Assembly: GCA_028714255.1 (NCBI GenBank)
Contig: JAQTMR010000016.1
Coordinates: forward strand, 1-45,870
Origin: Phycisphaerae bacterium
Lineage (GTDB): Bacteria; Planctomycetota; Phycisphaerae; Sedimentisphaerales; Anaerobacaceae
DNA: 45,870 bases
Reading direction: 5' to 3'
In this document: piece by piece, positions 21,435 through 26,988 of the stretch
Position numbering within the stretch: the first letter of the stretch is position 1
How the letters are laid out: each line of letters begins with the position of its first letter
Made by a program: the position numbers and the translations under genes
Notes under the pieces: model-generated
Databases searched by the model: none
What the model was told of the DNA's origin: nothing
Seen by the model: only the letters and a program-made list of their open reading frames with translations

Positions 21435-23381
21435 ATGCCGATAGTAACGTTAAAGAATATACATATGTCATTCGGGCCGCAGGCGATTTTCGACCGGCTC
21501 AATTTGAAGATATATCCCGCCGAGAAGGTCGGCCTTATCGGCAGCAACGGGTGCGGAAAAACCTCACTGCTGAAAATGATTCTCGGAATTCTGCCTCCGG
21601 ACACCGGCCATGTTCAGCAAAGAAAGGCACTGCGAATCGGATACCTCCCGCAGGAGCCGGTTTTCTCCGGCGAAAAAACCGTTCTCGAAGAACTCCACGA
21701 TAGCGCACAGGAAATACTCGACCTGCAAAAAAAGCTGCACGACTCCGCGGAGACATTAAGCAAATTGCACGGCGGCGAATTAAAATCCGCAATGAAGCAG
21801 TACGACCGACTAAGCAGCGAATTTGAAATTACAGGCGGATACAGGTACGAAACGAAAATAAAAGAAATCGCCGCCGGCCTCGGCCTTGAGGAAAAACATT
21901 ATCCATTAAAAACAACACAGCTTAGCGGCGGGCAATTATCCCGATTGGGACTGGCCAAAGTCCTGCTCGCAGACGCAAACCTGCTGCTGCTCGATGAGCC
22001 GACAAACCATCTCGACTGGAACGCGACATTGTGGCTTGAAAAATTCTTAAAAAACTACAGCGGAGCTGCGCTGATTGTCAGCCACGACAGGTTTCTGCTC
22101 GATAGATTGGTCTGTAAAATCGTGGAAATCAGGGACCGCGGGGCGATTGTTTATTCGGGCAATTACAGCACTTACAGACAGGAAAAGGGCAAACGTGACC
22201 TCGAACTGGGCCGTCAGTACGAACAGCGAGTGGAGTTCATCGAAAAAACTCGCGACTTTATCGTGCGCAACATAAACCGCAAGGGGACAAAGAAAGTCGC
22301 GCAGGGCAGGCAAACCCGACTCGATAACCTTCTCAAGGCTAATCCTGACTTTCTCGAAAAACCAAAGCACACACGAGAGCTTAGTTTCAAATTTGCCGAG
22401 GTGGAAAACAGGGGCAAGCGAGTAGATGCTGCGGTAATCTGTAAAAATCTTACGAAAAGTTTCGACGGCCTGACGCTGTTTGAAAATTTAAGTTTCGAGA
22501 TTCTCACAGGCCAGCGTACAGGCATCATCGGCCCCAACGGAAGGGGCAAAACAACGCTGCTGAAACTTGCCCGTGGACAAAGAGAGCCGACATCCGGAAC
22601 AATCGCGATTAAGAAGTCACTTTACATCGGTTATCTTGACCAGGCGGGAGCGGAGCTGAACCCGGAAAATACCGTGCTTGAAGAAGCAGCGAGTGTCATT
22701 CCTGAAATGCTGCCAGAACAGATGCGCAAACGCCTCGGGGCATTTCTGTTTGTCAAAGACAATGTGTTTAAAAAGGTCGCGGACCTTAGCGGCGGAGAAC
22801 GAAATCGGCTGGCGCTTTGCAAACTCGTTTTGTCAGAACCGGAAGTTCTTATACTCGATGAGCCGACAAATCACCTTGATATCCCAAGCATCGAGGCGCT
22901 CGAAAATGCACTTCAGAATTACGCGGGGACAATCATCGTCATAAGTCACGACAGGTTTTTTCTCGACAGAGTAGTCCAGCGGCTTATTGTGCTCGGCGCG
23001 GATGAACTGGGCAAAATGACACCGGGCAGATTCGAATTTATAACCGGCTCATTCAGCCGATACGCCGAACTTTTAGAGCAAAGAGCATTAGAACGAGTAA
23101 CAGGACCGCAGGCTGCAAAGCCGAAAAGCCCAAAGCAGGATAAGCCGAGAAAGACTACCCCGCCGGAACTAAAACAATTTAATCCCTGGTCGGTGGAAAA
23201 GATTGAGCAGGCAATTGAGCAGACCGAGGCGAAAATTAAAGAGCTGCACGAAAGTTTCGGTAATGAAAAAGTCTATAAAGATTACAAACTGCTCGCCCAG
23301 GTGCAGGACCAGGTCAAAGAAAAAGAGCAATATCTCGAACTGCTCTATAGGGCTTATGAACTGAAAACAAGCAACCGTTAA
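21435..23381 (+). CDS. ABC-F family ATPase (Uup/EttA-like)
   Basis: Two ABC ATPase modules lie in one 648-residue soluble protein. The first has Walker A GSNGCGKT (36-43), signature LSGGQLSR and Walker B LLLLDEPTNHLD. The second has GPNGRGKT, LSGGERNR and VLILDEPTNHLD. They are joined by the charged linker of ABC-F proteins (about 240-320). A C-terminal coiled coil (from KIEQAIEQTEAKIKELHE on) is Uup-like. ABC-F proteins act on ribosomes or DNA, not in transport; antibiotic protection is one possible role. The start was set at ATG 21435. A TTG at 21369 gives 22 more residues, but its only GGAGG is 18 bases upstream. Confidence 0.94.
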   Translation: MPIVTLKNIHMSFGPQAIFDRLNLKIYPAEKVGLIGSNGCGKTSLLKMILGILPPDTGHVQQRKALRIGYLPQEPVFSGEKTVLEELHDSAQEILDLQKKLHDSAETLSKLHGGELKSAMKQYDRLSSEFEITGGYRYETKIKEIAAGLGLEEKHYPLKTTQLSGGQLSRLGLAKVLLADANLLLLDEPTNHLDWNATLWLEKFLKNYSGAALIVSHDRFLLDRLVCKIVEIRDRGAIVYSGNYSTYRQEKGKRDLELGRQYEQRVEFIEKTRDFIVRNINRKGTKKVAQGRQTRLDNLLKANPDFLEKPKHTRELSFKFAEVENRGKRVDAAVICKNLTKSFDGLTLFENLSFEILTGQRTGIIGPNGRGKTTLLKLARGQREPTSGTIAIKKSLYIGYLDQAGAELNPENTVLEEAASVIPEMLPEQMRKRLGAFLFVKDNVFKKVADLSGGERNRLALCKLVLSEPEVLILDEPTNHLDIPSIEALENALQNYAGTIIVISHDRFFLDRVVQRLIVLGADELGKMTPGRFEFITGSFSRYAELLEQRALERVTGPQAAKPKSPKQDKPRKTTPPELKQFNPWSVEKIEQAIEQTEAKIKELHESFGNEKVYKDYKLLAQVQDQVKEKEQYLELLYRAYELKTSNR

Positions 23382-23437
23382 CCGCTGGGGCCCAGATTTT
23401 TCAATTTCCCCCCAACCGCGAAAATATCGAGGCAATT

Positions 23438-23479
23438 GACGCAAAGCGTCATCCCGACCGCAGCGCAGTGGAGGGATCT
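23438..23479. repeat. Dispersed repeat after the ABC-F gene
   Basis: The unit has a small palindrome GACGC-AAA-GCGTC (23438-23450), then ATCCC...GGGAT as an inverted pair (23451-23477). This composition matches widespread short repeats of the type CATCCCGA..GGGATCT seen in many bacterial genomes. Confidence 0.6.
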
Positions 23480-23710
23480 ATTTTAAACTACCCGAACTCA
23501 ACTGACTATCGACTAAACTGTCTTGACATTCCTCTTCCACCAAACTAAATTATAGCTATCAAAAAGCGTTGTATATTGTTATGTTATATGAAACACCCCC
23601 AGAATAAATAGCATATGAAAAAATGTTTGAACTCCTATTCAGTCGTTAACTTAATAACAATCACTTCATTGCTTATCGTAATCTTATGCCCGAAAATGTA
23701 CGGACGTGAA

Positions 23711-23716
23711 GGAGGT
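23711..23716 (+). promoter_or_regulatory. Strong ribosome binding site that decides the start of the channel protein
   Basis: GGAGGT lies 9 bases before the ATG at 23726. The alternative ATG at 23615 in the same frame has no comparable site, so the shorter protein is favoured. Confidence 0.7.
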
Positions 23717-23725
23717 AGGGAAAGT

Positions 23726-25612
23726 ATGAATAGACAAGACAAAACATATAATAAAACACAATACGATCTGTTAAAAAAATGCTCTAAAAAGAAAGATGTC
23801 ACAGAATGGAACAATTGGAGAAAGAAAAACCCCAGGGAAAAAGTAATATTAACAGGTGTTAACTTATCTTCATTTGAATTAGTTGATGCGAACCTGGAAA
23901 ATGCAGACCTTAGGGGTGCTCAATTATTTAATACAAATCTGAGTAACACAAACCTAAGAGGGGCAAACCTAGAAGAAGCTTATCTTGTAGAAACAATTTT
24001 GAATTCAGCCGTTTTAACTAAGGTGACTTTCAAAAGTGCTATCTTGACAAGAGTAAAAGCTAATAATTCAAACTTCGATTATGCAGATTTTGAAAACGCA
24101 AGCATAAAAATACCAGAAATAGAGAACTGCACCTTTATAGGCGCAAATTTTAGTTACACTAACATCTCGGATAATTTTATTAGAAAATGCGACCTCAAAA
24201 ATTCGATTTTTATAGAAACGATAGCAAAGAATGTCGATTTTAAATATTCGGATTTTTCTAATGTAATATTTAATAATGCTAACCTTAGTCAATCAAACCT
24301 ATGGTACGCAAAATTTAATGTTGATGAAATAAAAAAAGCCAAACGGTTATTTCACGCTAAATTTTTATTAGAAGACTATAACGACTACCTTTCGTTAAAA
24401 GAGAAAGACATCCTTTTTTGTTACGAAAAGCAATATAAATGGTTACTCGAATGTTCTGAGAAAAAAGATTTATCCGAATGGAACGAGTGGAATCCACACA
24501 CAGGCTATAAACATACCGGCAGGATGATATATCTTGCAGGTGCCGATTTGGAGAAGTTGTTTTTGGAAAAAGTGCGTCTAGGAAATGCTGATTTAAGGGA
24601 AGCACGTTTCATAGGCACAAATTTAAAAGGTGCTTTGCTAGACGAAGCCAACATGGAAGGAGCATACATGAATGGTGGCCCTTGTTTAGACGGTGCGTTT
24701 TTAGATCATGCAAACTTGAAAAACGCTTGGTTAGGATCGGCGTGTTTTCGAAATGCACGTTTATTTGGAGCAGACTTAGAAAATACTGACCTGTGTGACG
24801 CAGATTTTTCTATGGCTGATTTGAGAAGGGCTAATCTTAAAAATACAAAAAGTATCTTAGCCGCAAATTTTGAGAAAGCTCGCATGGAAGCTGTCAATTT
24901 AGAAGGTGCTAATCTTTACAAATGTAATTTCTCTGGCACGGATTTTCATAGAGGTATTGTTGATGGCACAACCTCAATGTATCAGTGTCAAGTTGACAGA
25001 GAAACGGATTTTAGATGTGTTTCTTTGGATAGTATCGGGATAGATTCAACAACGAAAAGGTTACTAGAATATAATATCAGAAGAAAGAATTGGAGTGATT
25101 GGTATTGGCAAACAACCTATGAAGAAGGAAAAAAATTCCATTCAGATCATGGCCCCAAAAAAGAAATTATGTGGAAAAATATAACTCGTTTTATAATTAC
25201 TTTGCCAGTTAGGGGATTTTGGTGGATAAGTGATTACGGTACTAATCCGCTTAGAATTCTGAAGGTTTCTATTGCAATCTGGTTTGTGTTCACTTTAATT
25301 TATTTTAGCTTTCCTAAATGCATAGAGAATCTTTGCATGAAGGATCTTACCGTTCGAAAAGGCAAAATTTGCAGTATACCTACAAGAATGCAACTGTTTT
25401 GGCGTTCAGCGTACTTTTCTGCATCTACAATGATAATATTTGGCAGTGGGGACATGTATCCCAAACCATATGGTAAAGCTCAGCTTATTGTAATTGTACA
25501 AGGGTTTATTGCTTATTTCTTGCTCGCTGAATTAGTTACCTTTCTCGGCATTCTTTTCACAAGTGGTGGTCCATTTTTGATTTATATGTATCCTCATGCT
25601 GGTTTCCCATAA
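23726..25612 (+). CDS. Pentapeptide-repeat protein fused to a two-helix ion channel pore
   Basis: This 628-residue protein has two blocks of pentapeptide repeats (A(D/N)LxX; roughly residues 40-200 and 260-430), which fold as a right-handed beta-helix. Its C-terminus is shaped like a two-TM channel: helix RILKVSIAIWFVFTLIYF (509-528), a pore loop TMIIFGSGDMYP (568-579), and helix IVIVQGFIAYFLLAELVTFL (586-605). SGD stands where potassium channels have GYGD, so ion selectivity may differ. A motif LLxxCSxKKDxxEWNxW occurs before each repeat block (15-31, 240-256), and a third weaker copy is at 446-461. The 23615 start would add a signal-like segment that would put the repeats outside and invert the pore; channel topology and the GGAGGT site favour 23726. 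Codon use is more AT-rich than the neighbours, which hints at transfer. Confidence 0.8.
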   Translation: MNRQDKTYNKTQYDLLKKCSKKKDVTEWNNWRKKNPREKVILTGVNLSSFELVDANLENADLRGAQLFNTNLSNTNLRGANLEEAYLVETILNSAVLTKVTFKSAILTRVKANNSNFDYADFENASIKIPEIENCTFIGANFSYTNISDNFIRKCDLKNSIFIETIAKNVDFKYSDFSNVIFNNANLSQSNLWYAKFNVDEIKKAKRLFHAKFLLEDYNDYLSLKEKDILFCYEKQYKWLLECSEKKDLSEWNEWNPHTGYKHTGRMIYLAGADLEKLFLEKVRLGNADLREARFIGTNLKGALLDEANMEGAYMNGGPCLDGAFLDHANLKNAWLGSACFRNARLFGADLENTDLCDADFSMADLRRANLKNTKSILAANFEKARMEAVNLEGANLYKCNFSGTDFHRGIVDGTTSMYQCQVDRETDFRCVSLDSIGIDSTTKRLLEYNIRRKNWSDWYWQTTYEEGKKFHSDHGPKKEIMWKNITRFIITLPVRGFWWISDYGTNPLRILKVSIAIWFVFTLIYFSFPKCIENLCMKDLTVRKGKICSIPTRMQLFWRSAYFSASTMIIFGSGDMYPKPYGKAQLIVIVQGFIAYFLLAELVTFLGILFTSGGPFLIYMYPHAGFP

Positions 25613-25659
25613 AAAGTCTTGTGACAAAACAACGACAAAATTTCCAGCGTCCTCTTTTA

Positions 25660-25733
25660 ATCCGTGGTTAATTTTTTTGTACTTTTTTGTGCCCAAAAAA
25701 ATCAGTGAAATCCGTGAAATCTGTGGCTAATTA
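25660..25733. repeat. ATCCGTG-type dispersed repeat
   Basis: Units ATCCGTGGTTAATTT, ATCAGTGAA, ATCCGTGAA and ATCTGTGGCTAATT follow each other. The same words appear at the ends of the 123-bp repeats near 15940 and 16130, so this is another copy of the same dispersed family. Confidence 0.65.
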
Positions 25734-25765
25734 AATTTCAATCAAATGCGCAGGGGGGTGCAAAA

Positions 25766-25860
25766 TTGTTGTAAGTTTGGTATCAGTTTTTGCATGTTTT
25801 GTATAAGTTTTGATAAGTTTGGCTATGTTTTTGTAAGTTATTGTAAGTTTTTGCACGTTT
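25766..25860. repeat. 10-bp periodic T-rich array
   Basis: Nine consecutive 10-base blocks (25771-25860) carry GTTT, or a one-base variant of it, at nearly the same phase, for example GTATAAGTTT, TGATAAGTTT, TTGTAAGTTT, TTGCACGTTT. The period equals about one turn of B-DNA. Confidence 0.75.
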
Positions 25861-25941
25861 CAAAACATGAACATGCGCAATTGATGCTATCCCATTTTAC
25901 TCATCTTACCTATTTTGTCGTAGCAAAGACGGGCTTTTGCG

Positions 25942-26988
25942 CTATTCTACATCTGCGATATCGCCCTGTGCCTCGCCGACAAGGTAAATTTTGTTTTTTC
26001 CGCTGCGTTTTGCTTCCAATAAAGCCTTGTCGGCTTGGTTGAAAAGCTCGTCGATATTCGAGCCGTCGCGAGGGAAGCTCGCAAGTCCGCCGCTGATAGC
26101 GAGAACGCCTTTGCCTTCCGGGCCAAGCAGGTGCAGCTCAGCCTTGCTTAATTGTTTTCTGAATCGTTTGGCTATAAAAATCGCCTCTTTCGGATGGTCA
26201 GCCATCTCCGAGCGGCGTTCGGCCTCTTCCTTAGATAGTTCTCTTCGCGGGTCGTCCCAGAAAACGACGGCGAACTCGTCGCCGCCGACTCTGCCGACAA
26301 CGTCGTGGCTCCGGCAGCACTTCTGCATCAAAACAGCGGCTTCTTTTAAGATTTCGTCGCCTGCGGAATGGCCATATACATCGTTATAATGCTTAAAGTT
26401 ATCGATATCGAAAATAAGCAGCGTTACCCTTTTATTTTCGCTGCGTGCGCGGGCTATAATCTGTTTCGAAAATTCCCAGATATATCTTCTGTTCTTTAGG
26501 CCCGTAAGCTCGTCTTCGGTCGCCATTTTTTCGAGCTGACTTATTCTGCCGCCAACTATGTTATCAGCAGCTAATCGGCCATTACCTCCATCAGATGGTG
26601 AAACGGCCTCGCAGAATTTGCTTGTCTGGACGGGGCAAATCAAATAATCGTCGGCCAGCGTTGTGCCGTTGCAAGCGGAGCTAACCATTTCCATAGCGGC
26701 AGGCTCCTCATAGACCTGCGCAAGGAGGATAATCTTCGCGTTGCAGTTAGCCTGTCGCAGAGATTTCAGAATCGAGGCTAATTTAGCAGGAGCCGCGGAC
26801 ATCATAACCGCGATAGCCGAGAAGCTGTTTTCCCCGGCCAACTCGATTGCGTCGGGCATATCGGCGCGTATTTCGCACGGCAGACGGCGAATAGCATCGG
26901 CATCGAGGAAAATATTGTTAACATCGCCTATCAGCAGGATTTTGTGAGCGCCCATCCGTGGGAAATCCGGTATGTTAGAAATTGCCAT
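25942..26988 (-). CDS. Diguanylate cyclase (GGDEF) with degenerate receiver-like N-terminus
   Basis: The C-terminal half makes cyclic di-GMP from two GTP. Its markers are DELTGLKNRRYI, FDIDNFKHYND and the active loop GGDEF near residues 233-237. An inhibitory I-site RSHD sits exactly five residues before GGDEF, so product feedback is expected. An insertion rich in charged residues (DPRRELSKEEAERR) follows. The N-terminal 130 residues begin HKILLIGDVNNIFLD and alternate strands and helices like a response-regulator receiver domain, but no clear phospho-acceptor Asp pocket is seen. No membrane segments occur, so it should be cytoplasmic. No partner gene is adjacent. Confidence 0.92.
   Translation of the reverse strand: MAISNIPDFPRMGAHKILLIGDVNNIFLDADAIRRLPCEIRADMPDAIELAGENSFSAIAVMMSAAPAKLASILKSLRQANCNAKIILLAQVYEEPAAMEMVSSACNGTTLADDYLICPVQTSKFCEAVSPSDGGNGRLAADNIVGGRISQLEKMATEDELTGLKNRRYIWEFSKQIIARARSENKRVTLLIFDIDNFKHYNDVYGHSAGDEILKEAAVLMQKCCRSHDVVGRVGGDEFAVVFWDDPRRELSKEEAERRSEMADHPKEAIFIAKRFRKQLSKAELHLLGPEGKGVLAISGGLASFPRDGSNIDELFNQADKALLEAKRSGKNKIYLVGEAQGDIADVE

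What the first reader, a model, noticed from the sequence alone, without database searches (positions are those of the whole stretch)
23726..25612. Pentapeptide-repeat ion channel with a nonstandard pore
A beta-helix of two repeat blocks is joined to a TM-pore-TM module whose filter reads FGSGD rather than the potassium-type GYGD. The gene is AT-rich against its neighbours. Pentapeptide repeats as cytoplasmic domains of a channel could sense ligands or bind DNA-like partners. Two possible starts differ by a signal-like segment, which would flip the topology.
Basis: partly seen in the sequence, partly recalled or inferred. Interest (0 to 1): 0.65.

Follow-up and report, generated by a model that had tools for sequence, protein, structure and literature searches.

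The report
Pentapeptide-repeat channel with altered pore
This gene of a Sedimentisphaerales-type planctomycete encodes a membrane channel of the potassium-channel fold attached to two stacked pentapeptide-repeat domains, an architecture shared with the anti-phage channel HalA, but its ion filter has changed in a way not found in any of the relatives examined.

Summary
The ORF 23726-25612 is intact: two pentapeptide beta-helix blocks, each with its own helical cap, joined to TM-pore-TM. The short start is best supported (strong SD, family-like N-terminus). The gene belongs to an unnamed family of single-block pentapeptide-repeat channels, common in its order and patchy elsewhere. Relatives carry potassium-type filters (TMTTLGFGD and near variants); this copy reads TMIIFGSGD and has also lost two conserved inner-helix glycines. 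Divergence is confined to the membrane part: pore identity to the family is 0.40 against 0.61-0.77 for other members, while the linker is ordinary (0.54 against 0.56). The same genome has a canonical paralogue. The only solved structure found matching both repeats and membrane part is HalA, the DNA-gated channel of Hailong anti-phage defence (9nyi, Z 12.7). It is not Hailong: the HalA score is far below cut-off and no HalB was found in the genome. Relatives occur as cargo in a Pectobacterium conjugative element, a Mu-like phage and a Salinivibrio defence-like stretch. Most likely: a HalA-like repeat-gated channel or effector family, of which this is a diverged, no longer strictly K+-selective member. 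Defence role, gating and conductance are inferred.

The parts
23726..25612 (+). Pentapeptide-repeat channel gene, 628 aa, preferred start
   Evidence: open frame; Pfam Pentapeptide E 2e-47; family alignment
23615..23725 (+). Alternative 37-aa N-terminal extension with hydrophobic signal-like stretch (max KD15 2.67), probably not translated
   Evidence: no SD before ATG 23615; extension not conserved as a feature in relatives
23708..23715 (+). Shine-Dalgarno-like GAAGGAGG, 10 nt before ATG 23726
   Evidence: sequence
23753..23827 (+). Helical cap 1 (QYDLLKKCSKKKDVTEWNNWR), aa 10-34
   Evidence: AlphaFold2 of block 1, pLDDT about 93; conserved cap motif
23843..24316 (+). Pentapeptide beta-helix block 1, aa 40-197; the extra block, not seen in other full-length family members
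   Evidence: AlphaFold2, Pfam, alignment
24425..24490 (+). Helical cap 2 (QYKWLLECSEKKDLSEWNEW), aa 234-255
   Evidence: AlphaFold2, alignment
24527..25045 (+). Pentapeptide beta-helix block 2, aa 268-440
   Evidence: AlphaFold2 pLDDT about 95; PDB pentapeptide folds Z 20-27
25046..25138 (+). Conserved linker helix (LLEYNIRRKNWSDWYW), aa 441-471; looks like a third cap
   Evidence: invariant R/N/W positions; ordinary conservation in this copy
25157..25240 (+). Interfacial slide-type helix, aa 478-505
   Evidence: AlphaFold2; 10 of 19 members hit the Kir (IRK) membrane model
25247..25309 (+). TM1, aa 508-528
   Evidence: AlphaFold2, alignment
25385..25432 (+). Pore helix, aa 554-569
   Evidence: AlphaFold2, alignment
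25433..25453 (+). Filter I-I-F-G-S-G-D (aa 570-576); family T-T-L-G-F-G-D
   Evidence: alignments and survey
25475..25561 (+). TM2 / inner helix, aa 584-612; conserved Gly replaced by Ala at 596 and 601
   Evidence: AlphaFold2

Best explanation
The protein is a membrane channel subunit of the potassium-channel fold. Its pentapeptide beta-helices probably hang in the cytoplasm and probably form a tetrameric collar that gates the pore, as in HalA. The family looks like a partly mobile, HalA-like sensor or effector channel that acts without HalB, probably in stress or phage response. This copy gained a second beta-helix block and lost the potassium filter and the inner-helix glycines, so I infer that it is non-selective, weakly conducting, or works as a modifier of the canonical paralogue rather than as a K+ channel. 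Shown: repeats, TM-P-TM homology, filter and glycine changes, pore-specific divergence, paralogue, mobile-element carriage of distant relatives. Inferred: tetramer, cytoplasmic side, gating by the repeats, phage or stress role, altered conductance.
For: Family alignment with invariant pore and linker residues; 18 of 19 members hit Ion_trans_2; the profile finds K2P, Kir and NaK pores in the PDB. HalA 9nyi is the one listed hit spanning repeats and membrane part: Foldseek E 8.9e-05, Z 12.7, 281 of 333 residues, model 261-613. Window copy departs at T570I, T571I, L572F, F574S, G596A, G601A, all conserved in 30-31 of 31 relatives. Pore identity 0.40 against 0.61-0.77; linker 0.54 against 0.44-0.63. 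End branch 2.86 against a median of 0.31. Canonical paralogue at G000:C3. Relatives as cargo: Pectobacterium ICE between TIGR03747 and RAQPRD genes; Mu-like phage contig with GemA, Mor and terminase; Salinivibrio near ThsB-like TIR and HNH genes. Gene GC is below flank GC in those hosts.
Against: No direct evidence of conductance, oligomer or defence. No PADLOC match. No recurrent partner gene among neighbours. In several Sedimentisphaerales the gene sits in a fixed chromosomal place near ispE and a SpoVG-type gene, which suits a housekeeping channel better than a mobile effector. The HalA match is by architecture at low identity (10%) with rmsd 8 A.
Confidence: 0.45

Rival explanations
1. Decaying duplicate. 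After duplication the pore came under relaxed selection, and the copy is on its way to becoming a pseudogene with no channel function.
For: Pore-only acceleration and very long branch; no orthologue with two blocks or this filter found; many short C-terminal remnants of the family in related genomes, e.g. seven matches in G003.
Against: 628 codons are intact, with a strong SD, while the next frame has 52 stops; linker and cap motifs are at family-typical conservation; G573, G575 and D576 are kept.
Confidence: 0.25
2. Silent or regulatory subunit. The copy co-assembles with the canonical paralogue (L006) into heterotetramers and changes selectivity or gating.
For: Both copies in one genome; linker and cap motifs kept while the pore changed.
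Against: Different contigs, no co-localisation; co-assembly not testable here; the two have diverged strongly in TM1 as well.
Confidence: 0.15
3. Ordinary housekeeping K+ channel of planctomycetes with ligand-sensing repeats; the altered filter is a tolerated variant.
For: TLGFGD in relatives is a potassium-type signature; two relatives have GFSD variants (L018, L021); conserved chromosomal place in several genomes.
Against: Loss of the filter threonine, the aromatic position and both inner-helix glycines together is far beyond family variation; carriage of relatives on a phage and an ICE.
Confidence: 0.15

Closest known systems
HalA, effector of the Hailong anti-phage system (PDB 9nyi; NCBIfam NF051894)
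   Same: Pentapeptide-type beta-helix joined to a TM-pore-TM channel in one chain; same order of parts.
   Different: HalA model score 20.7 bits against a cut-off of 250; no HalB in this genome; here the beta-helix is doubled and the filter altered relative to its own family.
Ion_trans_2 (PF07885) two-TM potassium channels, NaK, K2P, Kir
   Same: TM-P-TM fold; relatives keep TLGFGD.
   Different: Filter IIFGSGD, inner-helix Gly to Ala twice, long pentapeptide part; the window copy misses the Pfam cut-off.
Pentapeptide repeat proteins of the Qnr/MfpA/HetL type
   Same: Right-handed quadrilateral beta-helix (Z 20-27).
   Different: Those are soluble; here fused to a channel. No equivalog cut-off is reached.
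HglK, membrane pentapeptide protein of Anabaena (reviewed in PMC8145042)
   Same: Pentapeptide repeats plus membrane helices.
   Different: HglK has four N-terminal TM regions and C-terminal repeats (PMC8145042); here repeats are N-terminal to a TM-P-TM module.

Membership tests
Hailong HalA | Score above the curated HalA cut-off (NF051894, 250 bits) | tested here: not met
   20.7 bits, repeats only
Hailong HalA | Partner nucleotidyltransferase HalB (NF051895) | tested here: not met
   No match at E<=0.001 in the genome (98.9% complete), none adjacent in the window
Hailong HalA | Beta-helix plus TM-P-TM in one chain | tested here: met
   9nyi Z 12.7, 281 of 333 aligned over model 261-613
Hailong HalA | Binding of oligodeoxyadenylate that shuts the channel | not testable with these tools
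   needs binding and flux assays
Potassium channel (Ion_trans_2) | TM1 - pore helix - filter - TM2 | tested here: met
   alignment and AlphaFold2; relatives match Pfam Ion_trans_2
Potassium channel (Ion_trans_2) | Pfam gathering score 22.5 | tested here: not met
   12.4 bits for this copy
Potassium channel (Ion_trans_2) | Filter T-x-G-[YFL]-G-D | tested here: not met
   I-F-G-S-G-D
Potassium channel (Ion_trans_2) | K+-selective conductance | not testable with these tools
   needs electrophysiology
Pentapeptide repeat superfamily | At least eight tandem pentapeptides forming a beta-helix | tested here: met
   PF00805 E 2e-47; both blocks fold
Qnr/MfpA gyrase protectors | Curated Qnr or MfpA score | tested here: not met
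   62 bits or less against cut-offs of 240 and more

The most novel reading that the evidence does not exclude
A HalB-free, single-gene relative of HalA in which doubled pentapeptide helices sense a nucleic acid or other ligand directly and open a pore that has abandoned potassium selectivity, acting alone or as a modifying subunit of the canonical paralogue.
Probability: 0.18. Interest if true: 0.78.

Novelty: new variant of a known kind. Interest (0 to 1): 0.52.

Why it matters
It shows that the HalA architecture, pentapeptide beta-helix on a potassium-type pore, is a wide family outside Hailong, present in planctomycetes and carried by a conjugative element and a Mu-like phage. That makes single-gene, HalB-free channel effectors directly testable. 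The window copy is a natural experiment on what remains of such a channel when the filter and inner-helix glycines are lost while the putative gating part is kept.

Tried and rejected
PADLOC gave no hit for the gene or its relatives. E. coli genomes: no match to the Pectobacterium gene. Plasmid and phage tblastn mostly matched pentapeptides only; one Acaryochloris plasmid protein covers the membrane part. Searching HalA across 392 genomes of the phylum at E 1e-10 found nothing, but nothing rang in the controls either, so it shows no absence. A recurrent partner gene was looked for among neighbours and not found, with only the top 25 Pfam families shown. Full-length AlphaFold2 gave poor confidence for block 1 because relatives align to block 2 only; folding block 1 with its own alignment resolved it. 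The empty site could not be shown: gene order around the ABC-F and GGDEF genes differs in relatives, or the contig ends. Rfam: no RNA in 23300-26100. The Hailong paper itself was not held; what I say of its mechanism comes from the 9nyi title, PMC13275509 and my own knowledge. The first scan of viral contigs with the window sequence alone found nothing.

Full report
What is there. The frame from ATG 23726 to the stop at 25612 is open for 628 codons; the next frame holds 52 stops. Pfam finds pentapeptide repeats at E 2e-47 in 11 stretches. They form two blocks. Each block starts with the same helical motif, QYDLLKKCSKKKDVTEWNNW and QYKWLLECSEKKDLSEWNEW, and a third, looser copy (LLEYNIRRKNWSDWYW) leads into the membrane part. 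AlphaFold2 gives a beta-helix for block 1 when folded with its own alignment (pLDDT mostly 80-94) and for block 2 in the full-length model (about 95), followed by a slide-type helix, TM1, pore helix and TM2. The models were guided by an alignment of relatives, so the pore fold is partly inherited from them.

Start. GAAGGAGG lies 10 nt before ATG 23726; nothing of the kind precedes ATG 23615. Most relatives begin 0-50 residues before the cap with a hydrophilic N-terminus; three (L053, L064, L069) have a hydrophobic stretch far upstream, and L053 and L069 also have a later hydrophilic ATG. L064 is an exception that I could not resolve.

Family. Searching the organism's order and the GTDB genomes gave a family of mostly 300-470 aa proteins: one repeat block, the conserved linker, TM-P-TM. 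Named records are mostly Phycisphaerae and Sedimentisphaerales, with outliers in Desulfobacteraceae, Kiritimatiellae, Salinivibrio, Pseudomonas and Pectobacterium. Eighteen of 19 aligned members hit Ion_trans_2 at E<=0.01 and ten also the Kir membrane model; the window copy reaches only E 0.15. The profile picks up K2P, Kir and NaK pores in the PDB.

What is odd about this copy. In 33 distinct members with the linker motif, 26 filters read TMTTLGFGD; others are TMTTLGLGD, TMTTVGFGD and TQTTLGFGD; two read TLGFSD (L018, L021); L101 is truncated before the filter. The GTDB scan used a filter pattern as one of its two baits, which favours canonical filters, but the second bait (the linker) and the profile search of the order do not. 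The window reads TMIIFGSGD. Of 68 positions conserved in at least 87% of 31 relatives it departs at 19, and these cluster in the filter and inner helix: T570I, T571I, L572F, F574S, G596A, G601A. Pore identity to the family is 0.40, where the 26 nearer members range from 0.61 to 0.77; the linker is 0.54, within 0.44-0.63. Its end branch is 2.86 against a median of 0.31. The stretch between TM1 and pore helix carries net +4 and three cysteines, where relatives lie between -3 and +1 with one cysteine at most, and the usual charged C-terminal tail is replaced by a hydrophobic one. No other full-length member with two blocks was found. The same genome carries a canonical 373-aa paralogue on contig C3. 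The gene has GC 0.35 in a 0.48 background; the paralogue has 0.43.

Closest structure. Foldseek and VIA-align list many pentapeptide folds, and one entry that spans repeats and membrane part: HalA bound to oligodeoxyadenylate (9nyi; E 8.9e-05; Z 12.7, rmsd 8.0, 281 of 333 residues, model 261-613). HalA is the ion channel blocked by the poly-dA adducts of HalB (PMC13275509). The window protein is not HalA by family score (20.7 bits against 250), and the genome has no HalB match at E<=0.001. In eight genomes holding relatives only short sub-cut-off fragments matched HalB. So it resembles HalA in architecture; membership is not met.

Where relatives live. In Pectobacterium aroidearum L6 the gene lies between TIGR03747 and RAQPRD genes of an integrative conjugative element. 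On IMG/VR contig L168 it lies behind GemA and Mor and ahead of the terminase small subunit, as cargo of a Mu-like phage. In Salinivibrio siamensis it lies among a ThsB-like TIR gene, an HNH gene and a P-loop ATPase. Against this, in several Sedimentisphaerales the gene sits in a fixed place near ispE and a SpoVG-type gene.

Mechanism. I think it most likely that the repeats form a cytoplasmic collar that gates the pore on binding a ligand, and that the family serves phage or stress response; this copy has given up strict K+ selectivity or conductance. The repeat and pore homology, the residue changes and their pore-specific pattern are shown. Oligomer, side, ligand, conductance and biological role are inferred. 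A decaying duplicate and a silent partner of the paralogue remain real alternatives.

Noticed in passing
window 25613-25940, core about 25690-25917: AT-rich GTAAGTTT-rich dispersed repeat just 3' of the gene, with about 25 long copies elsewhere in the genome at 71-84% identity, several near contig ends and one 3.4 kb from the paralogue (L006:9585-9788); no Rfam match.
   Followed up: partly
G003:C1, G047, G039, G104, G019, G057, G106: Short in-frame remnants of the C-terminal end of the channel family, seven matches in G003 alone, suggesting frequent loss of these genes.
   Followed up: no
L018 and L021: Two relatives carry TLGFSD, with the second filter glycine replaced by serine: further filter variation within the family.
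   Followed up: no
L168:4401-5531 (IMGVR_UViG_3300035532_000270): Canonical pentapeptide-repeat channel as cargo of a Mu-like phage, next to a 146-aa and a 340-aa gene without PHROG or Pfam match.
   Followed up: partly
L087:5425-6522 (Pectobacterium aroidearum L6): Canonical pentapeptide-repeat channel inserted between conjugation genes of an ICE; in Pectobacterium sp. PL152 (L093) the corresponding gene appears split over frames.
   Followed up: partly
L037, L040, L041, L046, L050: Channel gene in a conserved block with ispE, a SpoVG-type gene, an AMMECR1-type gene and a DedA-like membrane gene (names by my reading of the sequences).
   Followed up: no
L064:5128-6522 (Sedimentisphaerales): Single-block member whose upstream ATGs include a hydrophobic N-terminal stretch; the one relative for which a signal-like start is not readily excluded.
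   Followed up: no
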